64,000 nucleotides of DNA from Monosiga brevicollis MX1 (taxonomy: Eukaryota > Opisthokonta > Choanoflagellata > Craspedida > Salpingoecidae): the NCBI RefSeq assembly GCF_000002865.3, contig NW_001865039.1, forward strand, positions 657,488 through 721,487. Direction: 5' to 3'. A model generated the notes under the pieces. That model worked only from the letters and a program-made list of their open reading frames with translations, ran no database searches and was not told the DNA's origin. The translations under genes and the position numbers were made by a program. Numbering within the stretch: position 1 is the first letter of the stretch; every line of letters starts with the position of its first letter. Shown in pieces: positions 920 through 44,102 of the stretch.

Positions 920-3900
920 TCAAGACTTAAGGGCTCGCGTCAACTTCTCACCTTGCCGTGCCCCGACCTCCTTGGATTTATACTTTTGACATGTTGATGG
1001 CCGACGATGCAATTGACATCCTCTCAATTTATCGTCCTGGTATGCGAGTCGGCTCGGCCGGAGGCACCCGCACAACACCAATGCTCCTTCATTAGACAGG
1101 AGCAGCGCGACGGTTACGGAGGATGTCTCGCGCGACATCTATCGCTGAATCTCCAATTGGCCAGTCCGCCTGGCAAATGTATCCGCGTAGCTGGGCAGTC
1201 GAACTCTGCACCCCTTGCACCACAAACGATCGGGGGGCTTGCCGTTGACCCAGCCCACTCGAGGCGGGCAACAGTGCATCTCCCGATTTGAACCCCCGCG
1301 CTCGCTGTGCTGGATTGGTTCGTGTAGTGGGCCTGCTTGAACGCCCTTCGGTCTGTTTGGCTTCAGCCACAACGTCCGGGTCTTGGCTGGGCGCAGGCGC
1401 TCCTTCAGTCCGCACAGCAAAGGCCATAAGACACTCCCTGTACTGAATGGTCCGGCCAGTACCTCGAAAGGGCACATGACACTTGATCCTGCTTGGTGAT
1501 ACGGGCGGGCTATGTAGTCTCGATGCCTCGGTCGGCTGCACATCGGCCATATCCTGGCAGGCAGATTGGAAGCGCCGTAGTACCTATGTAGCCAGGCACC
1601 GTGTGAAGAAAGATTGAGCCTGTTGCGAAGCGTTTCCTTTTTTCTCCGGGCAAGGAGGTGTTTGGAGTGTGTGTGATCAGGACGTGTACCTCAAGCTGAA
1701 GCGGCGAACGGGCTGCGTGGAATTGTTGCGTCTCTGAAGTGACCAATAGGTCATGCTTCGTGTCATGTAGTGCGTAGTGCAAAAGCTTGGGCCCCTGTGC
1801 TGCGGCCAACACACCGGGCGCGTTCAATATCTACATCGCCATCAGATTGAAGGATCAGCGCTGGCAAATGATTCTGTTCAAGTCACGCGCCAGGAATGAG
1901 ACTCTTTTTTTTGACGAGCACGGAGGTTTACGTACATGGGTTTCAAGATGACGAGTGCTGCGCTTTACCAAGCGTTTGACCAGGCTTTTACGCTCGCGCT
2001 GCGAGGCATGCATGACCAAGCTCAATGTTAAAGGGCTGTGTGATACGTATGGCAGGGAAGAGATGCAACTTCGACTCACCTCGCCGACGGGCGTGGCAAA
2101 TGCACTTGTTGTGCGCGAAGAAAGCAATGAATCACCATCGGAAGGTGATAACACGGTCTGCGACGCAAGCCTGAACAGGCCTGCTGGCTCCGGTGAATTC
2201 AGCATCGTGCTTGAGTGGGTGGCTTCAGGGGCATTTGCATCAACAACGGCCTGTAGCTCGGGCTTTTTGGGCTTCATCAAGCGTAGGCGAATCAACACCC
2301 GCAGGGTAAGATGGGTCTTGGCCAAGATTGCTTCCAGCATGAGCCAGGCTGCACTTACTCGAAACAAGTGCTCGTCCACCGCTTCAAGAAATTTGCCGCG
2401 CTTCAGGTCATCCAAGGCCCTCTCCATTGCTGGCGCACGCGACAAATCTATCTCGTTCCCAACAAAGCGATAAGGCGGACAAGGGTGAGCCTGTCTTTGC
2501 AATTCAAGTGGACTCGAGCGCAGGCTCGCGTTAATCATGGCGAGGAGATGCATGCGTAAAAGGCAACCAACGCAAGACTACTCGAGCAACACATGGATCA
2601 AGACAACCACTCGGAAGCCCACCTAGTGCGGGCGAGTCGGCCAGTGTATGCTGCACCAGCACAATAGCAAAGGTACCGTCCAAGTGGACGAGCCAGGACT
2701 CCCCGGGTTGGAGACCCGGTAGCGCGATTGTCAGTCGTGGCAGGGCGAGGCGCGAGCGGGACGTGGTACTGAGAATATGCAGGTGGGCCAAGACCGTGCC
2801 AAGCCTTTGTTCACAGGTCCGGCTCAATGTGCTGCAAAGTCAAGTTCCACGTGTTTTCATGAGCACCTTGGTGCGGTCACCACAGCTCTCAACACATGGG
2901 GCTGGGCTGACCTCTGAAGCAGGAGAGAACGATGAATGCACGCGACCCCGGTGATGGATGACACAACGCCATCAAAGTTGTGATAGCACTGAGACAATGC
3001 TCGCGTAAGTTGTGCCTTCAGTGCTGAAGGCAAGCTTGCAGCTTGGCCCCAAGGCAAACTACTCACGGCCACGGGTAGGATTGAGTCAAGTTTTAGCATC
3101 GCATCAAACAATCCGAGCCAACACGGTTGTTTCTTACCGTGAGCATAGCATGCCATCGCCGCCGAACGTTTGGTGCCCAACAGTGTCTGGGTCTAATCGT
3201 GCCAACGCGTCATCGGCCAATTGTAGAAAGAGCAAGTAAAGGTGCTGTGTCAAAAGTGCTTGGCCTTGTTCATTCAAGAGCAAAGTCTAGGGGGTGATAG
3301 CACGTCGACAGACGCCCAGCGCCAGTTATCAGCAAAGCACTCTTCAAAATCAACACAAGCCTGCTGCTTCTGGCCAAGCTCAATCCGGGGCAGTTGAGCA
3401 TCGACTAGTGACATACCTCAATAGATCCATGCAGTTGGGCGATGACTGAGCAAAAGTCTCGCTGTCGCGCAACAAGGTGTGCCAGGCTGATGACGGACGC
3501 TTCGACGACGAACACAAGAAAATAATCCTTGCTTAGAGGCAGGAAGCTCGCGCGCAACAGTACCCCATCGATCTGAAGCTGAGTGCTGAGAACCTACATC
3601 AGAGTATCGTGCAGGTGAGGCGTTAGTGTTTTTGAGGCTCGAACCCTTTGCTCGATGAAAACGAAAGGGTCGTCGCAACAAACCTCATCATGCGTCACGC
3701 TTTTGCTCAAATGATCAATCAGAGTCGTAAAGAGACCTTGGAGTTGCTCGACCCGCTCAGTAATGCGCTGACTCCACGCGGGCTGTGGCTCCTATTACCA
3801 TTCGAGGGTGAGTGGCCTTGTGCTAGTGGACGCACTGAAATTGGCCTCGAAAGCTCGCGGCCAGTAATGAAAAAGAAAAAAAAAAAGTTGATGGAGATGC

Positions 3901-6711
3901 AAACTGCCCGTCTTGTGCAACTCACGCCGAGAGTGGGCTGGCTGTAATGAAAGGTCAGATCGACTTCATGCTTTCGGGCTTCCGAAGGCAGCCGCACTAA
4001 TAAAGCATCGTGAAAAAACTCTGGCAAAACCTCGGCAACGGGTGATTGTCCTAGACGCATGAGCTGCGCCAGTCGAAGGAGTGCCGAAGCTGAAACATGC
4101 AAAGGACAAAACAGCTCCAAGTCAGACAGTGGATAATTTGAATCATGCCGGCGAAGCATGGCGAGTTGCTTTGGAGGTATCCCACTGACCAGGCGGGCTC
4201 GTTGCTAGCACGGCGGAAACTAGTTCTTCCTCCTTAACTTGTGCCCTAGAAGGCGGATAAGTTCATGCCGTGGGTGAGCGACGTGGTCAAAGAGAGCTTG
4301 CAATCATAGGAACGCAGGTTCCGTTCCACCGCACTGTTGTTGCGTGCTTTGAGATCAAATTCATTACCGGTGTAGAAACGTATCGCCAGGTAGCACGTGG
4401 GGCGATGCAAGTTCTGCCGCCAGGTCTTCATCCACGAAAGAAAGACATTCAGGGGTGCTGCAAGGGTACCGTGCCAGCCGTGATCCGGGCTCGCACGGCT
4501 AAAGGAAAAAAAAAAAAAAAAATGAGCTCAATATTTTGAAGTGAGCCTTGCGCATTTGGAGCGCCCAGTCGCTCACCAAGTCAAGACGCCATGTGCAAAT
4601 GAGGGGGCGTGGTTGGGCATCAGCCAGAATAGTATTGTCCCCGCGCCAATGTGTCATGAACACGGCTGATGGAGACATTTTGGGATCAGTCGGTAGCATC
4701 GTGGTCGGCTGGGCAATCTGCGTGTCGCCATGCTGGCGTACGGCAGCTATGGCAGCAAAAAGCAGCTCATTTCCATCACGTCGATGCAGGTGTTTCCCAA
4801 GCTAAGTAGCACGGCACAGTGTGAGCTGTCAATGAAAGGCACAGACGGAGCTGAGATCTGGTCTCGGCCGAGTAGCAAGCGCTCACCTCGATGCTATGCC
4901 GCTGCTTGGAGTAGTCTTGAGAATCTGTTGAGCTTGGGTCCAGCGAGGTTGTGGGGCCATGGCGCAGCTCTGGCTCAATAATGGTGGGAAGGGGTGGAAT
5001 CTCGCTTGCCTTTGAAAAGGCTGGAGTACATAACACAAGGTGAGATGGCAGTCCGCTTCGATAAGTCAAAGAAGTCAACAATCGCTCAACAAAGCAAAGC
5101 CCAGGGTCAAGCCAAGAACATAGATCCTCAGGCCACGGGCCCGATGTCTCCTCCCGTGCGCAGCGTACCCGTTTGTAAAGGAGTTGCATCATCAAGCTCT
5201 ACGCTTGGCTCGGGTTCGGCGGATGCGACCTCGCCTGCAAAAGTTGGCACCTCCGTTGGGTCTGACTCGGCCGTGTTCTCCCCAAGAAGATCAAAGTCCT
5301 CCCACGCATCATCACTAAAGCTGACGGTGCGTGTGCGTGTCCGGTCGCCCCGATGTATCCCTGGTGCATCGTCTTGAGCTGTGTCGATCGAATCGGCCTG
5401 ATGCTGGCCGAGAGTATCAGAAGTCGGGGTAGCAGCTGAACCATGTTGCTCTGGCTCGGGTTGAGTAGGCGCGAGCGGCGGTCGTCCAAAATCCAGGACA
5501 GACTGCTTCGTTACTTGAGAAGATCTATCTTCTCCCTCGCGCACTTCACTGCCGGAAAAGACATCCAAGCTATCTGTTTCACCGCCTTCATCATCTGACA
5601 AATCAGCCAGGAGGGCAACCGCAGCAAGGAGGCCCTGACTGGACAGGGTCTTGCTGGTACTGGCAGCAGGCGAGAGGAGATCGGTTGATGCGGCGCGGCG
5701 CGGGTGGGTACGACTGCTGGCAGTGCCCGGCAGCGAGGAGGTAGAGTGGCGCTTGCGGGGGGCTTGATCGACGGTGCTGTCACTGGCTACGGATGGACTG
5801 CGCGCAGTGCCGTCATAGCTCCAATCTGATCCCAATGGGAGGCGCGGTCGAGCAGAAAAGATGTCACTGCCGCTGTCGCCACGACTCAAGGTTAGTGAGG
5901 CTCTAGCTGAGGACACGCGTGAGTTTGAGTGTGGTGACGTCGAGGTGACTGTTGATGCGCCATCGACGCCAAAGGTGGTGATGCGCTGCGCGTTTCGGCC
6001 GCGCGGCGAGTTGGAACGAGGGCTGAGGGGACGGATGTTCCCACTGGTGCGAAGAGACGGTCGACCAGGCGAGCGAGTTGAACGGGTTGAACGAGTCGGC
6101 GATGGAGTTGTAACTACACGGCAAAGCGTGTGAAAGAACCACGGGTTGAACATGAGTAGAGGCGACAAAGGAGGGGGTTGTGCACGTGAAGCGAGCAAGC
6201 GCGAGAGATACATACAAGTCAGCGAGCTAAGATTGCCCATGCTGTTGGATGCGCGTAGTTGTTCGCTTATGGGAGGACGGTGAAGCGAGCGGCCTCGCTC
6301 GAATTCTGGAGGTAGGTGGGCAACCATTGGGGGCATCTGATCAAAGAAGCTGGGCTGTCGCTCAACGGCTGGCGAGTCGTGGGCGAAGAGGTGCGTGGGC
6401 ATGGGCAACTTCTGCACCCCACTTGCGCGAGCCTGATTTGGGCTTGCCGTAGCAGAGCGCGTGCGGGTGAGCCCACCGATATCGGGGCCCATCATGTAGG
6501 AAGAGCGCTGGCTACTGACGCGGGGGCTGCCCGTCGGTTCGATCGCGATGTAGGAAGATCGTTGGCTGCTGCTACGCGGGCTAGGTGTGCTGCCCCCTGC
6601 CGTATTGGCACTCGCACCGATGCGTACGCCGCCACTGGAAGCATTCTTAAACGCAGCATCCGACTCGTGGACGAGGGCCTCCAAGGCCAGCATGTCCAGG
6701 CGACGCGACAT
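920..6711 (-). CDS. Large unrecognised gene with a serine-rich disordered N-terminal half
   Basis: The start is taken as the ATG at 6711, reading MSRRLDML. The first long exons cover 6711-6216 and 6113 to about 5169, joined in frame across a GT-AG intron at 6114-6215. They encode about 480 residues rich in Ser, Arg and Pro, with repeats such as SSQRSSY and RSTRSTRS, followed by acidic patches (LSDDEGGETD, DDAWEDFDLLGE). This looks disordered and heavily phosphorylated. Downstream on the same strand are further open stretches flanked by plausible splice sites near 4810-4580, 4470-4370, 4130-3950, 3180-2990, 2820-2660, 2480-1950, 1820-1700 and 1550-920. They encode helical, leucine-rich sequence. 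I do not recognise a family. Several exon phases between 5170 and 4600 could not be settled, so this could be two genes. The stop near 920 is tentative. Confidence 0.5.
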
Positions 6712-8822: not shown

Positions 8823-11800
8823 TCAAAGCCGACTCTCGCTTTGATTCGTGTCCTCTAATGTCGGGCTTGGGCTCAATATTAAGCGTGGGGTTGCCTGAGA
8901 AGCCGGTAAAGCAGTGGGCGTGGCAGCCGCCTGCGACACGCCCACCGCAACCCACTTGTCCTGAAGTTGGGCAAAGGTGGGGCGATGCATTGGATTCAGG
9001 TCGATGCACCATCTCATCACGCTTGCCAATGCCGGGGGGCAGTGAGCGGGCGGTTCAAAGGCGGGAGCTCGAGCTTGCATTTCCACATGGTCACCGGAAG
9101 ATCCTAGGCTAGACCTTCTCTGACGAATCAACCCCGAACTTTTGCGGGAAAGCTCCACAAGTAGTCCCATAAAAGCTGCATCGTCAAGATGGGCTAGCGG
9201 CAAATCATCTTCAAAAAGTTCGTGCATCAAAACTCCATACGCATACACATCAGTAGCTTCGTTGGCCATCTTGTCCTTGAGCATTTCCGGCGCCAGCCAC
9301 CGCAAGGGCAAGGGCCGCGAAGTCTGAATGCCTATTTGAAGACCACGGGTCGTGAGTTGTAACTGCCGCAAGTCACCTCGGATGGTTTGTCGAGAACGCA
9401 CGGTAGTATTCGGAGGCCCCTTCATGAGATACAGCTGTGGCTCGGCTCAGGCCATAGTCTGACACCTGGATATCGACCCAAGAAAATGAGCATCGTGAGA
9501 TTGGAAAAAAAAAAAAAAAATTAATAAATAAGAACAAAAGCAATGCCGCCTTGTGCATTCAAACATTGCAATTTGTCGCGATCTGACCTTGACGGAGCTA
9601 AGGTCGCCTGAAACAAGCACTGCGTCGGAGACGAACGGCGAAACAATGACATTAGGTCATAGACAATGTGCACATGGGAACATCTTCCTTCTTCCCGCCA
9701 ACCACCTTTCCTTTTGTCAACCAACAAACAATGTGATGCACATACAAACCATTGCGAGCTGCAAGGTCACGATGCACCACGCCGCAGCGCACGAGCTCAG
9801 CCATGCCGTTTGCGATGGAATGGAGAACATGGATGGACAAGTCTGTGTCAAGCGGACGTGCATGGTGGTCGTCCAGCCAATCAGCGAGGGAGCCACCATC
9901 CAGATACTCTATCACCAGGCCGGGATGGGCGTCGTCATCCACCACGTGCAGCAATTGTACCAAATTGGCATGCTTTAATTTTCGCATCGTGGTCATTTCC
10001 TGCACAAACTCGTCCTTCACTTCGGAATCGAGCAAGCGCTTGACGGCCACCAGACGCTGCTTCCGTTGATCCTCGCTGCTGATACCCTCCAACTCCATTA
10101 ACATAACCTCGCCAAAGGCACCGGCTCCCAGATTGCGCACAAACTTCAGACGTGAATAATTGATGTAAAAATTGCGCTGTGGGTTGCAGAGCTCTTCCAC
10201 ATCGACGACCAGGCGGCGAAAATCGGCCACGAGCTGCTGCGACCCCATGACAACGTCGCAGCGACGTACCACGTCTTGGACCAAACGATCGCTGGCAAAG
10301 GCATGTCCAAAAGCTACGCCGGCCTCTCGGATCACGCCTTGCAATTGAGCCAGAGCTTCACGAAAAGCTTGTGCCAACTCCGGAACGTGCTTGATGTGCA
10401 TGCCTGAAACTTTGAGCAGTCCGGCACCAACCCGACAACAGCTGAGGCTCAGACCACTCACTGCTAGACCACGGTGTGCCATGTAATCGAGCCAGGAAAG
10501 GAGCTGGGCGCATAACCATTGCCGGAGTCGAAAAACAGCCGGCGTTGGGGCCAATTGTGTCAAGATAGGAAAGTCTTGCACAACCAAAGCTTCTTCCCAC
10601 CCCTCGTCCCCATAAAGGCGCGTGTGAGAGATGACAAACTGCTGGTGGGGATGTCGCAGCTGGTTGGCAAGACGACACGAATTTGTCCAAGTGGCCGAGT
10701 CCTGGTCACGTCGAACCAAGGCCACTAAAGAGGTGTGGCTCAGCTGCGCAGCATTTGTCACAACTTGCACGGCATCAAATCCACTCGCCAGCGCCCGTCG
10801 CCGTCGCACCTGAACGGGCAAATTGGGAAAGCTCAGCTTCTCCTCATGCTCGAATGCCCACTCACATTGCAAAAGTTGCTGGTAGATGCTACGAAATGCG
10901 GGGCGCTCTTTTGGATCTGCCGCGATGCATTCAGTATAGAGCGCGGTAGCAGCCGGCAAGTTGTGCGTTTGAGGCAAGGGTGGCAGCTGTGCTTGCCGTT
11001 GTCGCATGAGCACTTGCTGGCCATCCAATCCGGCAAAAATGGGGGTGCCATTGGCCATCACCTCGTACATCAAAGCCCCATAGCTAAAAACGTCGCCGGG
11101 GTTGGTGGGATGTGGGCACAACAGAAGCTCAGGGGCAAAGTACCGCGTACTGCCCCACGTCGCTGGGTCCCACACAGGTACGATTGTATGGCTTTCCGGC
11201 TTGATAGCTAGGTCCTCTTGATCTGGCACAGTGGGTGTTGCAAAGCCGAAGAGCTTGACCAGCGGGGCATTGTTCATCACGAGGACACTTTCGGTACAGA
11301 CACGACCATGAATCAGCTTCAAATCCTCCAGAAAAGACAACCCGGCCGCCAGCTATCGGCACGATAAGCAGAAATAATGTGAGAAAGCGATCGATGAGAT
11401 GTGAACTGGCTGAATGCCGAGTGTCATGGAAACCCTCACCGCGACCATGCCACACACACATACACATACGCGCGCGCACGCGTTCGCACCTGCAATAGAA
11501 TGCTCTGCTTTTGGGCAAGCGCCAGAGGAGCCACAGAGGCCAAGTGTGCTTGCAAAGTAACTGCTGTGGCCGACCCTTCGAAAAGCAGGAGCCCAGTCTG
11601 ATCGGTGTTGGTTGTAAAGGCCTGTAGCGATAAGATGTAGGAACTGCGCTGTGTCATAGCGTGAAGCGCGGCTTGAGCCCACGCACGCTGACGGGCAGCC
11701 GGGTGAAGGTCTCTGCTGCAACGCACACACAGCGCTGGTTGTCCGCGAAATTGGCAGTGCCGGAAGGCTGAGTTTTCGATGGCTGGGCCAATATGTGTGG

Positions 11801-14391: not shown

Positions 14392-15438
14392 TCATGCTGA
14401 TGGGGTCGTGATGCCTGCGCTGGACACGACAAAAGGCGCCGTACTCGAGGGGTATGAAGGGGAAAAAACAAGTGTGATGGTGCGGCGCGCCAAACTGGTG
14501 CTTGCGCCACGCGGGGTGGTGCGCCGTACGAGAACCCGGTGATTAACGCAGTTGGACCAGGCAAGGCCGAGGGCAGGAACGACGGCGCGGGCGCCAGAAA
14601 ACGCGGCAAGGCCCGTCGCATCCACGTGATCGGACACCTGGTTCGTACAGACGACGGTCAAGTTGCGCTCAGCAGCCAATGCCTTGAGCTGACGTGCAAA
14701 GTCCAAGATGGTGTTGGCGCGATGGTGCATTTCAGACAGTTGAAAATCCCCCCGAAAGATCGCAGCCAGCGAATCGATAATAATCAGCCGCACGGCAGGA
14801 CGCGCAGCACACACGCGAGGTACCTCGACCTCTAAGAGCCGCTGCAGCGCTGTTGTATCTGCGGCGCTCATGAGAAGCACACGATCGGTTGAGACGTGAC
14901 CCCGCCATTCCGGATGCAGTTCCAGCTGCCCGGCCAAGATCTCGTGCAAACGATCTGACGGAAAGTTGGCTTCCGTGTTAATGTAAAGCACCTCGCGCGG
15001 CTTGGCCTGTGTTGAAGCCACGGCTTGAGGGCTCGGTTCTGTAGTAGGTTTGGGCTGAGCGGGTATTTGGGCAGCCAGTGCCAAATGCAGCATGAGCTGA
15101 GTCTTTCCTGAGGAGGACTCTCCACAAAACTCGGTCAAGCTGCCAGATGACAAAGCTTCCCCCAACACGGCATCCACCTCGTCCACGCCCAGGCAGATAC
15201 ACTGCTCGCGTTGAGACCATAATTGACTTGCCTGCTGCAGCGATGGGGCCACAACCGCCGCCGCCGCAGCCCGGAGCTCCTCGAGACCGCGGGCCGACAG
15301 CTTGGTAATTTGCCGAAGCTCGGCGTCTGAGTAATGCACTAGGTCTCCCGCCTGTTGCAAACCGGCAGCCTCAAGCCGAGCCAAGGCCTCTGGATTGGCT
15401 TCAATCTGGGCCAGCCCAGCCTCCATCTGAAACGACAT
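14392..15438 (-). CDS. XRCC3: RAD51 paralogue, XRCC3-like
   Basis: A single uninterrupted exon of 348 codons, close to the usual XRCC3 length (346 in humans). An N-terminal helix-hairpin-helix-like region (about 1-65) is followed by a RecA-type ATPase core. Walker A is GESSSGKTQ (about 105-113) and Walker B is RLIIIDSLAAIF. The C-terminal LGLAWSNCVNHR and FSPSYPSSTAPFVVSSAGI match the XRCC3 subgroup better than RAD51 or DMC1. In animals XRCC3 pairs with RAD51C to help RAD51 filaments in homologous recombination. No intron is visible although neighbours are intron-rich. Subgroup choice among RAD51 paralogues is the main uncertainty. Confidence 0.82.
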   Translation of the reverse strand: MSFQMEAGLAQIEANPEALARLEAAGLQQAGDLVHYSDAELRQITKLSARGLEELRAAAAAVVAPSLQQASQLWSQREQCICLGVDEVDAVLGEALSSGSLTEFCGESSSGKTQLMLHLALAAQIPAQPKPTTEPSPQAVASTQAKPREVLYINTEANFPSDRLHEILAGQLELHPEWRGHVSTDRVLLMSAADTTALQRLLEVEVPRVCAARPAVRLIIIDSLAAIFRGDFQLSEMHHRANTILDFARQLKALAAERNLTVVCTNQVSDHVDATGLAAFSGARAVVPALGLAWSNCVNHRVLVRRTTPRGASTSLARRTITLVFSPSYPSSTAPFVVSSAGITTPSA

Positions 15439-15608
15439 GGCTTGTTGTTCTTGCTCCGGGAGTGGGGAACGATCGTCCCACCGATCACCGGGGCCGGCCT
15501 CAGCTGGCCGCGACTCTTTTCCGGACCGCTCAGCTCACTCCCAAGTCTTTGCGTTGCCCCAGCATGATGCTTGCCCACTACCCTATTCTGAGGCCCACCA
15601 GTGCTCAC

Positions 15609-34984: not shown

Positions 34985-37718
<2,734 letters not shown>

Positions 37719-37974
37719 TAAAGATGAGGCGTCATGCCAAATCTGCTGAGCAGCGGGTTTGACCTTGGTTGTCATTTGGTTTCTGCCCCTGGCTTGACCC
37801 TTGACCTGTCGGCTCAGATGAGGGCCCAGCGCGTCGGTCGTTGCCGCCGCCGCGCCCATCTTCCTTGGAGGAAATGCTTGCTTATGAGACATGTGTTGAA
37901 ATGAGACTGAATTGCACAGACCGTGAAAGACTAATCAACTTGAAGTAACAGCCGAGCCTACGAACCGTTCTTGC

Positions 37975-40900
37975 TTACGCCCCGGGATGGCCACCCGTGA
38001 AACGCATATTGTCAATCAGACGAACATTGCCTATCGTGCCCGCACACGATATGATAATGGGATCTGAGTACGCCACATTGGTGTCCAAAATGGCAGTCGG
38101 GGGAAATGGGCGTAGCCGTGCGTCGGTAACAGCCACGTAATGAACTGTTAAAGCTGGCTCGTGGGCCAAAGACTGCAAGATGGTAGCCTCAAGTTCAGCA
38201 ACGGTGATGGGAGGCAACTCTCCCCGATGCGCGGCTGTTAGACGGGTGAGCCCCGCCGTGAGCGCCTGAGGAATGACAACTGCTTGCTGCCGTGCCTTGG
38301 TGGTCAGATTGCGATTTCGGCTGCTCATGGCCAGCCCGTCGGCCTCGCGCCGAGTAGGGACGGTGCAAACCTCGAGGAATTGGCCGCGGTAACCAATGTC
38401 CAAATCCTCAACCATGCCCTGGATGGTGGCACATTGCTGGGCGTCTTTCTCCCCAAAGTATACGATTGTGGGCTGCACAATGTTGAAGAGCTTATTGCAC
38501 ACCAACGCTACACCGTCAAAAAAGTGAGGGCGCGAGGCTCCCTCGGGCTTGGTGGTGGCATCAGAAATGTGCAACTTGGTGTTGAGGGGTAAGCCGTGGG
38601 GATACATTTCCCGAGCTGACGGAGCAAATACAAAGTCGACACCCTCGGCGGCCAGCAACTCAACGTCCGCATCAAGGCTTTGTGGGTAGCGGTCCAAGTC
38701 TTCATTTGCCGCAAACTGGGCCGGGTTGACAAAAATCGACACGCCAATGGCATCGATGCGTCCTTGGTCTCGGTCGCGCCGTGCTGCCCGCACCAAGTCC
38801 AGGTGCCCCTCGTGCAGAGCACCCATGGTAGGGACAAATCCGACTCGGGCAGCGGCTGTGCGCGCATGGACCTCGGCCTTGGTTGTCAAGATGATGGGTC
38901 TACTGGAAGCATTTGCTGCTATATTCTTGTTGTTTGCGACGCATGGATGCAAGCCATGCACGCACGCTACGGCGGCCGCATTGGCTGGCGCTTCCATGCC
39001 CAGCAATTGAGCCTCGGCCACCAGAGCACCTAGTAGACGAGCCCTTGTGAGACTCCAATGGAAGAATGCAGGCGCACACCCTTGAATGCATGCTCTAGCA
39101 AGGGGGGGATGGCGCGAGGCATACGCTTACCATTGATAAAATCTACCTCAGTCTCCACGCCCCGCTGAACGTCGGCCAGCATGCTGGACACGTTGGGAGC
39201 AGTCCGCTGCAGAATTTCGCGCATTGTGGCTTGTGGATCATCCACGCTCAACAAGACTTGTTTGCGTTGGGCTATTTGCAGCCCTTCAGCTAAAAGCTCT
39301 AAATCGCATGGGACATGCATCTGGTTAGCACAACTTCTCTGATCCCATGCCAGATCGCACTGCGGATCATTCTGTAACCTTGCAGCAGCTCTAGCCAAGA
39401 AGGTACGAGGCGCCACGTACCGTCCATGGCCTTAAGGGCATCGGGTCGCGACAAAGCTTCCCCATTGCGTAGATTGAGCCAGGCCGTCACTGGGTTGATG
39501 GCCGCATTCATGAGAAGCTTGGTCCAAGTGACTGCCTCGATGGCGCGCTCGTCTCGCACGACTTCGACATTGAAACCGGCATCGGAGAGTAGGTGCTCCA
39601 GCAAGGCCAGATCCCGAGCCCGTGCGCTCATCTGTGGCGTTTCAGCTAGCAGGGTTGGCCCCATCCCAGTATGCACCACCGTTCCTGGCTCGGCTATCAT
39701 GGCCCCAGCCATGGTGATGCCAGCAACCACAGTCGCCATGGGCAGCCGGGCCTGTAGACGCTCCGCGTTGCCCAGCCCATTTTGCAAGGTCACGAGCAGA
39801 CTCGAGCCATCCTGGCGTAAGAGCTGATGGTTGACATTCCCAGGTCAGGCATATGACGGCACAAAGAGCATCAAATCACGCGGGCCGTACCTGACGCGCC
39901 ACTTGAGCAGCACCATCGGTTGAGTTGCTCTTTACCATCACAAAGACCAGATCACAATTGCCATGTGCCCGCACCCTTTGTCACCACCAATGACGGAGAA
40001 CCCTGATGAGGCCGTAGCAGACAACCCGCCAGCACGTGCGAGCAGCGCGTACGTTTGTTCATCCGCTCCAGGAATGACGCAAAAGGCGTGAGGGTCTAGC
40101 TGGACGTCCCGGCCCTAACAAAAATTGCAGATCGATACCGGGCCACATGAATGAGAGGGGTCTCTCAATGTGCTTTGCCTCTTCTGGAAAAGCGATACCA
40201 CAAGTGGTTGTCAGCTGCACACGCGCCGTGGCAGACCGAGCCAACATGCCCTTGCTCGCCCTCGACTGGCCTGCCGTGCCCTTGCTGCAAGCTCTAGACA
40301 AGTGCGGGTGCCGATTGAAAGAATCCCATGCTGCACACAAGAATCTGGTGGTCAATTTCCCCGCGCACTACGATTTGCTGCATTTGGAGCGTCTACCTGT
40401 CCGCTGTGGTCGATGAGGTTGAGCCCTCTGGAAGCCAGACAGTCACGGTGCTCTTGCCAGGAGGTGACCATGGTCAGGCGGAGGTTAGGCCTGGCGCTGC
40501 ATAGACGCGCAGCCAGTAAAGAGGCCATGGCACCACCCCCGATGATTCCAACGCTTGGTCCGCGCAAATGTGGGACCTGCGTGGCCATGCCACGACGTTG
40601 CTGCACCCCAACGGGACCATTCCGGGCGGTTCGGGCCGTGGCGAGCGCGGCAGCTTGTTGTGCAAAGGCCTCATGTTCATCTGCAGCCATGGTAAAGTCG
40701 TGCTGCCCACTCACGGGGAATTGGCCCGCACGAACTTCTGCAGCGTATGTCGTCATGGCATCCGCCATAGTTGGGCCAATGTGCGCGTACTGCTTGGTGA
40801 ACTTGGGCACAAATTTATCAAAGAGGCCAAGAAGGTCATGGAAGACGAGAACTTGACCCGAGGTATGGGCGCCAGCCCCAATGCCAATGGTGGGAATGGA

Positions 40901-41760
40901 GAGTTGCTCAGTGATGATGGCTGCGACCTCAGTCGGCATCATCTCCAGCACAACCATACTGCAGCCTGCCGCCTCCAGCGCCAGGGCTTCTTCAAGCAGA
41001 CGCAGAGCTCCACGAGAGGTTTTGCCTTGAACGGCATAGCCCCCAAGAGCAGCTACGGTTTGAGGCGTCAGCCCCAGGTGCCCCACTACGGAAATCCCGG
41101 CATCGTGAAGGGCCGTGACCTGAGCCACGACGTTGGGGGCGCGGGTGCCACCTTCCAGCTTCACAGCCTCGGCGCCGCCTTCCTTGAGCAGCCGGGTAGC
41201 GTTGGCCAGAGTGTCAGATACCGTCATGTAGCTACAGGGCATCAGGCAGCGGGGCCGTGAGCATGCTTGACGGCCACTCAGGATGGAGTTGAAATCCGGG
41301 CACGTGCAGAGTCAAGCACACCGGGGACACACCTGCCAAACGGGAGATCAGCAACAACAAGAGGCCGCGCCACGCCTGCATCGGCAGGCAAAGAGTGTAG
41401 GCTGTTAACCACGGCTTGGGTATGCAAGGTCATGTGCTCCATCGTGACAGGGACGGTTGAATCCATGCCGTAGATCACTTGGCCCAGCGAGTCACCGACA
41501 AGAATGCAATCAACGCTGCCCAGAGCGGCGATTCGAGCCGAGGTGTAATCGTAGGCCGTGACCATGACGATGGGCTCCCCCTGCCGGCGCTTGCGCTTGA
41601 GTTTATTCATGGTCACGGGGCGCGCTGGCCCCTGAACGCTCATGAGGCGATTTCCACTCCTGCACCCCATAGAAGATCGCGCCAGCGCACACGCGCGCAA
41701 TCCAGAGAGCCAGGGCCGCATGGCGGCTGTCGCTGCCGGAACCTCGACGTCGGACTGCAA
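37975..41760 (-). CDS. panB-panE-panC: Trifunctional pantothenate biosynthesis protein: PanB-PanE-PanC fusion
   Basis: Seven exons (41333-41760, 40397-41231, 40053-40114, 39891-39975, 39421-39823, 39131-39298, 37975-39029) total 3036 bases, exactly 1012 codons. Residues 1-50 look like a mitochondrial presequence. PanB (about 50-326) shows VTAYDYTSARIA, VGDSLGQVIYG, AVKLEGG and VVLEMMPTE; it adds a hydroxymethyl group to 2-oxoisovalerate. PanE (about 365-690) begins VGIIGGGAMASLLAARL (NADPH-binding) and continues VMVKSNS, TLQNGLGN, WTKLLMNAAINPVTAW and DFINGALVAEAQLLGM; it makes pantoate. PanC (about 703-1011) has FVPTMGALHEGHL, VSIFVNPAQF, FGEKDAQQC and GLAMSSRN; it joins pantoate to beta-alanine. 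Both domain junctions fall inside single exons (PanB-PanE in exon 2, PanE-PanC in exon 7), so the fusion does not depend on splice guesses. Introns argue against bacterial contamination. Confidence 0.92.
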
Positions 41761-42352
41761 TCACCCCTCAATGCCTGCTCCTTGCGGCAAAGAACTACGA
41801 CCGCTTGATCCGCAAAGAGCGACTGACGTCGCGACGCACGGGCACGAGCGAACTGCCACCGCCAGGAGCGCAGTGAGCATGCGCGGTAGTGAGATGACAT
41901 TGGGAACGTGCCAGCGGGAGCCCTCTTCTTCTCTCTCTCTCTCTCTCTCGCTCTCGCTCTTTTGCGCGCTTGCACAATACCTTACACAAGCAATCTGACA
42001 ATTAGGTTTGAAGTGTGTTTTTTGACAAACTTTGATGAGATGTTTTGCGCTAAAAGTAGACGATGATGGCTTTTAATGGTGCACAAGCACCTTTTCGATC
42101 TGTGTTCTCCAAAAAAAAAACACAGTGTGTGTGTGTGTGTGCAAAAGGCAATTGAGAAAAATGACGCTCGCTGCAACGTTCGGACAACACATCATTGTCA
42201 GAAAAACCAGTCAACGTGATCGCGAAAGCAGTGAGATTGAGCTTTTACCGTCAAACCTCCTCACTCCTGTCGTGGGCTCATGGAGCGTGTCCCTGACCCT
42301 TGCTGCTCTTTTTTTGTTCCTTTTTTCTTCTTCTTGTGACTCAGGGTGCAAG
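41761..42352. other. Divergent intergenic region between the pantothenate fusion and MRPL13
   Basis: No gene is seen. It holds a CT tract at about 41931-41960, a ten-base A run followed by a short GT run at about 42110-42141, and a T-rich stretch just before the MRPL13 start. Two divergent promoters must lie here. If the pantothenate gene begins at the second ATG (41721), its leader extends slightly further. Confidence 0.6.
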
Positions 42353-43450
42353 ATGGCATCGCAGTCGAGTCGGGTACGTGGTGCTGGCGGTGCAACTGCG
42401 GAGCAGCAACAGCGTGTCTGAAAGTGTCTGTAAACCTGTGTTCCATTGGGCCTTTCAAGCCCTGATTCACCCACACCTGCACGTCTCGCTCAACCCATTG
42501 CCACATGTCTTCACCCCTGACCTGTCTCTGCGCTCTACCAGGCTCTGTTGACGCACACCAAGCGATGGGTGTTGGTGGACGCAGCCCACCAGCCCGTTGG
42601 TCGGCTGGCCGCGCAGCTCTCCATGCAATTGCAGGGCAAGACCAAGCCCATTTACCATCCCACCACTACAATGGGGGACAACATTGTCGTCATTAACGCT
42701 GATGTACGTGGGATTCGTGGTGGTCTGGGGAGCTGCACCGCTCATCGAGCTTGAGACCAACGCGCAGACCACCCTTGTTGAAACTGCGCTTTAGCTGAAG
42801 CTCGCACCCTTCTGACTCGTGCTGTAATGGCTGTCGGCAAATTTCAAATAGAAGGTGCAGTTCTCCGGTAAGAAATGGGACGACAAGCTCTACAGGTGGC
42901 ACACAGGCTGGCCCGGAGGTTTCCGTGAGCGCACGGCCCGCGATATGCACGCCCGCAAACCAACTGAGGTGCTGCGCAAGGCCGTTAACGGCATGCTACC
43001 CAAGAACAAGCTCCGTCGCCGCATGATGGACCAGCTCTTCCTCATCGAGGGCGACGTACGTCCCTCTCCCATGACTGAGTGCGTTTGGCTGACCTGGTTG
43101 AAACTGATTGTCGCCACATCTTGCTTGTACCGCTGGATACCTGGCTGCTCCTCTTTTGTAGAAGCATCCTTACGGCATGAACGTGGATGAGGTGCTTCAA
43201 CCAGCACAGCTACCAGTGCCACCTCTGCCCCGACTCTTTGTCGAGCAGAACGTGGTCGGTGACGAACCTCCGCCGGATGGTTACGAGGTGCGTAGCCCTG
43301 CCATCCAGCGCATGCAGCCGTGTCTCGCCCATGCTCGCCCAAATACTTGCTCACCTGTTGTCATTTGCCTCGGCTGTGTAATCGATGAAACCCTAGTTGG
43401 GCGAGTCGGTGACGGTGCTGTCCGGTGAAATTAAGAAGATGGCCAACTAA
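42353..43450 (+). CDS. MRPL13: Mitochondrial ribosomal protein L13 (uL13m)
   Basis: Five exons (42353-42373, 42542-42703, 42852-43055, 43162-43287, 43397-43450), all of phase 0, give 188 residues. The core RWVLVDAAHQPVGRLAAQLS, KPIYHPTTTMGDNIVVINAD, KKWDDKLYRWHTGWPGGFRERTA, PTEVLRKAVNGMLPKNKLRRRMM and KHPYG are the standard uL13 signatures. Length and the H.G..G.F.ER block fit the mitochondrial large-subunit form rather than cytosolic L13a. It is a structural protein of the mitochondrial 50S-like subunit. No cleavable presequence is obvious, as often in this protein. The first exon codes for only seven residues. Confidence 0.93.
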
Positions 43451-44102
43451 GCCGACTGGGCAATTCCTCTTTTTTTGAAGCAGCCGTTTTGGGCCAAGGC
43501 CAACCCTGTTGACATCTTGGCTCTGACGCCAGCGACAGCGACGCTATATTCATCCTCTTAATGCGGCTGCTGCCGTATCGAACTTGCTTCCGTTTCCTCA
43601 TCCTCATCTTCTTCTTTTTTTTTTTTCTTTTTTTTTTCTTTCTCTCATTCGCCCCACTTTTGTACTCCCTTTGTCCATGTGTCTCTTTTTCCTCTTGCTT
43701 GTTTACTGACAGAATCTATCTCCGAGCCGAAGCCGTCTGTATTTGTGCCCAACATCAATGTTAAATGATGCTCGCCGAGGCATATAGGCCAAATATGGAA
43801 GGATTATGCTCCATGCATGCATTCCACGCATCAATGGAAAAACGAAACATGACCCCATTCACGCAAATCTCACAAAAAGTCCTGCGACCACAACTCCAAA
43901 CTCTGGCCACCTGGCACCCTCAAGAGACAACGCAGTGGGCATGGAAGCCCACAGATGAAGAAGCCCACACAACAACAAAGCAGCTGCACAAAGACAATAC
44001 AACGAAGAAACGAAAAGAAAAGTGCACTGATGACTGACAGCAGCAAATTCAGCTCCACTGGCGACACCCATGGTGGCTGGTGCCAAGTAGCTCAATGATA
44101 TC
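43451..44102. other. Convergent intergenic region
   Basis: This lies between the stops of MRPL13 (plus) and MTMR14 (minus). It holds a pyrimidine-rich tract at about 43605-43645 and short AC-rich frames without any domain. I see no gene; it should contain both 3' ends. Confidence 0.6.

What the first reader, a model, noticed from the sequence alone, without database searches (positions are those of the whole stretch)
37975..41760. Three-enzyme pantothenate pathway fused into one eukaryotic gene (PanB-PanE-PanC)
Seen: both domain junctions sit inside single exons, PanB to PanE in exon 2 (40397-41231) and PanE to PanC in exon 7 (37975-39029). All seven exons close in phase to exactly 1012 codons. 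Known: these enzymes catalyse consecutive steps from 2-oxoisovalerate to pantothenate; animals lack them; apicomplexans are known to fuse the first two. Inference: a single polypeptide carrying all three steps would channel intermediates, and a presequence-like N-terminus suggests it works in mitochondria, near the branched-chain keto acid supply. I am not aware of a described triple fusion, but could not search.
Basis: partly seen in the sequence, partly recalled or inferred. Interest (0 to 1): 0.92.

Follow-up and report, generated by a model that had tools for sequence, protein, structure and literature searches.

The report
Three-in-one vitamin B5 enzyme gene
A single-celled relative of animals, Monosiga brevicollis, appears to carry all three enzymes that make vitamin B5 in one gene; the fusion looks real, but a similar three-enzyme gene has already been reported from two algae related to malaria parasites.

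Summary
The core observation holds. One minus-strand gene (41721-37975) encodes PanB, PanE/ApbA and PanC in pathway order, and both junctions lie inside uninterrupted exon frames. The genome is Monosiga brevicollis or very close: a PDZ piece elsewhere matches PDB mbDLG 68/68. Six-frame searches find PanB, the PanE C-terminal domain and PanC only here. Most near-invariant columns are kept: PanB 65/71, PanC 55/61.

Three claims need correcting. (1) "Exactly 1012 codons" carries no weight: 654 GT-AG models close the frame, 166 keep a key PanE motif, and 2 of these have 1012 codons. Exon 3 is unresolved; I prefer a 998-residue model. (2) The N-terminus is Arg-rich without Asp/Glu, but no more amphipathic than shuffled sequence. 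(3) The triple fusion is not unprecedented: PMC8717973 describes a trifunctional KPHMT-KPR-PBAL ORF in Chromera and Vitrella; whiteflies have fused panBC (PMC5157087).

Nine literature searches, most with capped listings, showed no report in choanoflagellates. It is a new member of a known kind in a distant lineage. Whether the fusion is shared or convergent could not be tested.

The parts
41333..41721 (-). Exon 1: 35-residue N-terminal extension, then PanB N-terminal part (PF02548 positions 2-86)
40397..41231 (-). Exon 2: rest of PanB (PF02548 91-257), PanB-PanE linker of about 50 residues, start of PanE (GIIGGG motif; PF02558 1-48, 19.2 bits on its own, below cut-off). The 3' end may instead be 40372 or 40369
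40053..40114 (-). Exon 3, preferred but unproven model (62 nt; T-rich acceptor, GTACGC donor; 998-residue protein). Alternatives include 40099-40053, 40065-40053 with exon 2 ending at 40369, and 40250-40147
39891..39975 (-). Exon 4: PanE Rossmann region with CDLVFVMVKS
39421..39823 (-). Exon 5: end of the PanE N-terminal domain (LQNGLGN) and start of its C-terminal domain (WTKLLMNAAINP)
39131..39298 (-). Exon 6: PanE C-terminal domain (NVSSML, ETEVDFIN)
37975..39029 (-). Exon 7: end of PanE, linker, PanC (PF02569 8-267/268), stop codon

Best explanation
This is a nuclear gene of the choanoflagellate Monosiga brevicollis for a trifunctional pantothenate-synthesising protein of about 990-1010 residues. 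The PanB part transfers a hydroxymethyl group from methylene-tetrahydrofolate to 2-oxoisovalerate. The PanE part reduces ketopantoate to pantoate with NADPH. The PanC part joins pantoate to beta-alanine with ATP. Shown here: order, continuity of both junctions, conserved motifs, intron-containing eukaryotic context, and only one genomic place found for PF02548, PF08546 and PF02569. Inferred: that one mRNA and one polypeptide are made, that all three parts are active, and that fusion enforces equal amounts of the three activities. The chemistry is established knowledge of the families. Mitochondrial targeting and channelling are possible but have no good support here.
For: Pfam scores per exon. 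ApbA 90.1-100.8 bits in the nine of ten tested models that keep CDLVFVMVKS, 68.7 in the one that lacks it. Junctions in open exon frames. Single genomic place for each of three families (six-frame searches that ignore introns). 65 of 71 PanB and 55 of 61 PanC columns that are at least 95% conserved in 80 and 62 prokaryotic sequences are kept (6 of 68 PanC loci dropped as short). PanE motifs of exons 5-7 align with solved ketopantoate reductases. Eukaryotic neighbours on a contig longer than 1.5 Mb. One Fumble-type pantothenate kinase match and one IlvD/Edd-family place that could feed 2-oxoisovalerate.
Against: No RNA or protein data. Exon 3 is unresolved. PanC differs at 6 of 61 near-invariant columns, including the His of the GHF motif, and PanB at 6 of 71. 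No PanD match in the genome, though a short intron-split gene could be missed, so beta-alanine must come from elsewhere; spermine oxidation is a possible source, since yeast uses it and choanoflagellates have spermine synthase homologues (PMC12803844, passages). The N-terminus is not more amphipathic than shuffled sequence.
Confidence: 0.88

Rival explanations
1. Three adjacent genes or alternative transcripts mis-read as one; the parts are made separately.
For: No transcript evidence was available; an ATG occurs in the PanB-PanE linker (RRGMATQVP); exon 3 is unresolved.
Against: Both junctions lie in uninterrupted exon frames; the start of PanE shares an exon with PanB and the end of PanE shares an exon with PanC.
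Confidence: 0.06
2. Partly inactive fusion: the gene is kept for one or two activities only, for instance with PanC impaired.
For: Six near-invariant PanC residues changed, including the GHF His; long Monosiga branches in prokaryote-only PanB and PanC trees (0.98 and 1.53).
Against: Exon frames open; PTMGALHEGH, FVNPAQF and FGEKDAQQ motifs kept; no other genomic place found.
Confidence: 0.08
3. Bacterial contamination or a recent bacterial operon transfer.
For: PanB is up to 56% identical to prokaryotic proteins in best segments and PanC up to about 44% in the 40 of 68 rows printed; panB and panC are often neighbours (68 of 80 loci hold a PanC match). In a prokaryote-only tree PanB pairs with Alicyclobacillus L034 (support 0.96) and PanC is sister to 13 acidobacterial sequences (0.85).
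Against: Introns, a contig over 1.5 Mb and eukaryotic neighbours; long branches, and the two domains point to different groups; no fused PanB frame among 80 prokaryotic loci (longest stop-to-stop frame 410 aa, some cut by locus ends).
Confidence: 0.03

Closest known systems
[quoted passage not shown] PMC8764084 Fig. 1 legend seen as a passage)
   Same: All three pantothenate-synthesis activities annotated in one ORF of a eukaryote.
   Different: [quoted passage not shown] here a choanoflagellate with no other copy found. The text seen does not give domain order, sequence or splice structure, so homology of the fusion is untested.
Bifunctional KPHMT-KPR of coccidians such as Toxoplasma gondii, and of Perkinsus marinus (PMC8717973)
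   Same: PanB and PanE in one protein; the T. gondii protein is reported in the mitochondrion.
   Different: PanC (PBAL) is separate there; here it is fused on.
Fused panBC gene of the whitefly Bemisia tabaci (PMC5157087, abstract and passages)
   Same: Pantothenate enzymes fused in one eukaryotic gene with introns.
   Different: Lacks PanE; allied with Pseudomonas; here PanE sits between PanB and PanC and no clear donor is seen.

Membership tests
PanB / ketopantoate hydroxymethyltransferase (PF02548) | Family profile match and conserved active-site residues | tested here: met
   94 and 229 bits in exons 1 and 2; 65 of 71 near-invariant columns kept, including D47, D95, K124, H151 and E196 in query numbering; which residues are catalytic is recalled
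PanE / ketopantoate reductase (PF02558, PF08546) | Family profile match with GxGxxG-like, VxVK, NGxG, WxKLxxN and ExDxING motifs | tested here: met
   ApbA 68.7-100.8 bits by exon-3 model, cut-off 22.2; ApbA_C over cut-off in exons 5 and 6; motifs of exons 5-7 aligned to 5hws, 5ayv and 3hwr; GIIGGG and VMVKS read from the sequence; the motif list is recalled
PanE / ketopantoate reductase | Complete N-terminal domain encoded by resolved exons | tested here: inconclusive
   Exon 3 ambiguous
PanC / pantoate-beta-alanine ligase (PF02569) | Full-length profile match and adenylation motifs | tested here: met
   282 bits over 8-267/268; PTMGALHEGH, FVNPAQF and FGEKDAQQ present; residues called essential for the Mycobacterium enzyme in the PMC5772511 abstract (search listing) were matched by eye only
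PanC / pantoate-beta-alanine ligase (PF02569) | All near-invariant residues kept | tested here: not met
   55 of 61 kept; GHF His replaced by Phe in the alignment. This lowers confidence in activity, not family membership
Trifunctional KPHMT-KPR-PBAL fusion (chromerid type) | Three domains in one ORF | tested here: met
   as spliced gene, exon 3 unresolved
Trifunctional KPHMT-KPR-PBAL fusion (chromerid type) | Common ancestry of the fusion | not testable with these tools
   No collection of eukaryotic genomes was on hand
Mitochondrial precursor | Arg-rich, acid-free, amphipathic N-terminus | tested here: inconclusive
   6 Arg, no Asp/Glu in 35 residues, but moment 0.34 against a mean of 0.40 in 2000 shuffles

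The most novel reading that the evidence does not exclude
The whole vitamin B5 pathway is one old or transferred protist gene: choanoflagellates and chromerid algae share a PanB-PanE-PanC fusion by deep descent or protist-to-protist transfer, and animals lost the entire pathway at their origin by losing a single gene. PMC6792448 (section 20) lists Pantoate_ligase among domains lost at the animal stem; if the fusion was already in that ancestor, one loss would explain why animals need vitamin B5.
Probability: 0.2. Interest if true: 0.68.

Novelty: new member of a known kind. Interest (0 to 1): 0.42.

Why it matters
It puts a complete pantothenate-synthesis fusion in a sister lineage of animals, far from the alveolates where such a fusion was reported. 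It gives a concrete, testable picture of what animals may have lost when they became dependent on dietary vitamin B5, and a natural template for a one-gene pantothenate pathway.

Tried and rejected
Viral-contig scans for PanB exon 2 and for PanC gave 7 and 1 pattern matches, none of them relatives. An Rfam scan of 36001-43500 found nothing over threshold; the sigma-70/terminator scan does not apply to this organism. PDZ pieces L086 and L087 did not identify the organism; L094 did.

Donor search by tree, prokaryotes only: PanB pairs with Alicyclobacillus L034 (support 0.96) on a branch of 0.98, PanC is sister to 13 acidobacterial sequences (0.85) on a branch of 1.53. I do not take these as donors because no eukaryotes could be included. 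Suggestive only.

Considered and rejected: assembly artefact, contamination, separate genes. No structure prediction was run.

Papers: PMC8717973 section 5 part 1 of 2 and passages; PMC6792448 section 20 and passages; passages only of PMC8764084, PMC4501334, PMC12614181, PMC9418006, PMC4046809, PMC7738191, PMC5157087, PMC10530615, PMC8512817, PMC12803844 and PMC10481521; all others as search listings. That no choanoflagellate report was seen rests on nine searches: all 5 and all 8 papers listed; 20 of 27 listed; 20 of 84; 15 of 246; 40 of 354; 15 of 60; 12 of 183; 12 of 1,976. It covers open-licence PubMed Central only; supplements were not readable.

Full report
What is there. The minus strand between 41721 and 37975 carries a split gene. 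Pfam gives PanB in exon 1 (94 bits) and exon 2 (229 bits), the ApbA/PanE N-terminal domain from the end of exon 2 into exon 5, the PanE C-terminal domain in exons 5 and 6, and PanC in exon 7 (282 bits over nearly the whole profile). The PanE piece of exon 2 alone is below Pfam's cut-off (19.2 against 22.2 bits) and becomes convincing only when joined to the later exons. The PanB-PanE junction is inside exon 2, whose frame has 278 codons and no stop while the two other frames have 11 and 9; the PanE-PanC junction is inside exon 7, whose frame has only the terminal stop while the others have 10 and 11.

Gene model. Six exons have GT-AG borders that fit the domains. The stretch between exon 2 and exon 4 is not settled. 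Allowing introns of at least 30 nt, an exon 3 of at least 10 nt and exon 2 ending at or beyond 40441, 654 models (4 one-intron, 650 two-intron) keep the frame open. Of these, 166 keep the CDLVFVMVKS motif, with lengths of 967 to 1057 residues, and 2 of the 166 have 1012 residues. Closing in phase to 1012 codons therefore has no diagnostic value. Ten alternatives were scored against ApbA: nine that keep the motif give 90.1 to 100.8 bits, too narrow a range to choose; the one without it gives 68.7. I prefer exon 3 at 40114-40053 (93.1 bits): its acceptor follows a run of T, its donor GTACGC resembles two other donors of this gene, and the protein has 998 residues. The highest-scoring model (100.8 bits) needs a 13-nt microexon. 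This is a judgement, not a proof.

Organism. The assembly G000 has 39.47 Mb in 57 contigs. It gives 146 PDZ matches, a lower bound since 150 of 197 candidates were scored. One of them (L094) is identical over 68 of 68 residues to PDB 6x1p 'mbDLG'; PMC8512817 names mbDLG as a Monosiga brevicollis protein and lists 6X1P (passages). The neighbours are eukaryotic: ribosomal protein L13 in two frames on the opposite strand at 42521-43187 and a tubulin-domain frame at 35382-36074.

Is it the pathway? In six-frame searches of the whole genome PF02569 matches only exon 7, PF02548 only exons 1 and 2 and PF08546 only exons 5 and 6. PF02558 was not searched genome-wide. No PanD match was found; such searches can miss short or intron-split genes. 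One Fumble-type pantothenate kinase match and one IlvD/Edd-family place in 4 pieces, one of them with a TGA inside, are present. Of columns at least 95% conserved among prokaryotic sequences, the gene keeps 65 of 71 in PanB (80 sequences) and 55 of 61 in PanC (62 sequences; 6 of 68 dropped as short). The PanC changes include the His of the GHF motif, which counts against full confidence in activity. The PanE motifs of exons 5 to 7 align with solved ketopantoate reductases, best with 5hws and 5ayv.

How it most likely works. One polypeptide runs the three consecutive steps from 2-oxoisovalerate to pantothenate; the chemistry is established knowledge of the three families. Equal dosage of the activities follows if the polypeptide is made. 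Channelling is a hypothesis. Beta-alanine may come from spermine oxidation, as in yeast; choanoflagellates have spermine synthase homologues (PMC12803844, passages), but this was not tested in this genome. The first 35 residues contain 6 Arg and no Asp or Glu, but their hydrophobic moment (0.34) is below the mean of shuffled versions (0.40; 68% of 2000 shuffles are as high or higher), so import into mitochondria is only weakly suggested.

Known relatives. [quoted passage not shown] a legend in PMC8764084 mentions one ORF spanning all 3 genes. PMC5157087 reports a fused panBC in whitefly. The kind is therefore known. Nine library searches (seven of them with capped listings) showed no account of the choanoflagellate gene. 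PMC6792448 lists Pantoate_ligase as a domain lost at the animal stem, and says that such losses may partly reflect transfer into the unicellular relatives; it does not mention this fusion in the section read.

Origin. Prokaryotic comparison gives no clear donor. PanB identities reach 56% in best segments (best 80 of 451 kept); PanC reaches about 44% in the 40 of 68 rows printed. None of 80 PanB loci has a fused frame (longest stop-to-stop frame 410 aa, some cut by locus ends), while 68 of 80 have a PanC match. In prokaryote-only FastTree trees the Monosiga branches are long; PanB pairs with Alicyclobacillus (0.96) and PanC is sister to acidobacteria (0.85). Of eight genomes searched for PanE, 4 matched, best in two Baldrarchaeota. 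Without eukaryotic sequences I cannot say whether the choanoflagellate and chromerid fusions are one event or two.

Verdict. The structural observation is right; the codon count and the novelty suggestion are not. This is a real member of a known kind, not seen described in the searches made, in a lineage where it bears on how animals came to need vitamin B5.

Noticed in passing
37111-37242: Long CA/GT dinucleotide repeat just downstream of the gene.
   Followed up: no
42521-43187, + strand: Ribosomal protein L13 in two frames (so presumably with an intron), divergent from the fusion gene; the two may share an upstream region.
   Followed up: partly
9655-11352 and 14395-15534, - strand: A protein kinase of the tyrosine/serine-threonine type and a Rad51-like protein.
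   Followed up: no
L007, PanE 3670-4287 (-) and PanB 4737-5528 (+): In a Baldrarchaeota archaeon panE and panB are divergent neighbours, and both are among the best prokaryotic matches seen for the Monosiga domains.
   Followed up: partly
L034 and L037: PanC lies in stop-to-stop frames of 586 and 590 aa in an Alicyclobacillus and a Tectomicrobia record, about twice the usual length; the extra part was not identified.
   Followed up: no
38518-38532, - strand: The PanC stretch usually reading RPGHF reads RPHFF here, so the near-invariant His is shifted or lost.
   Followed up: partly
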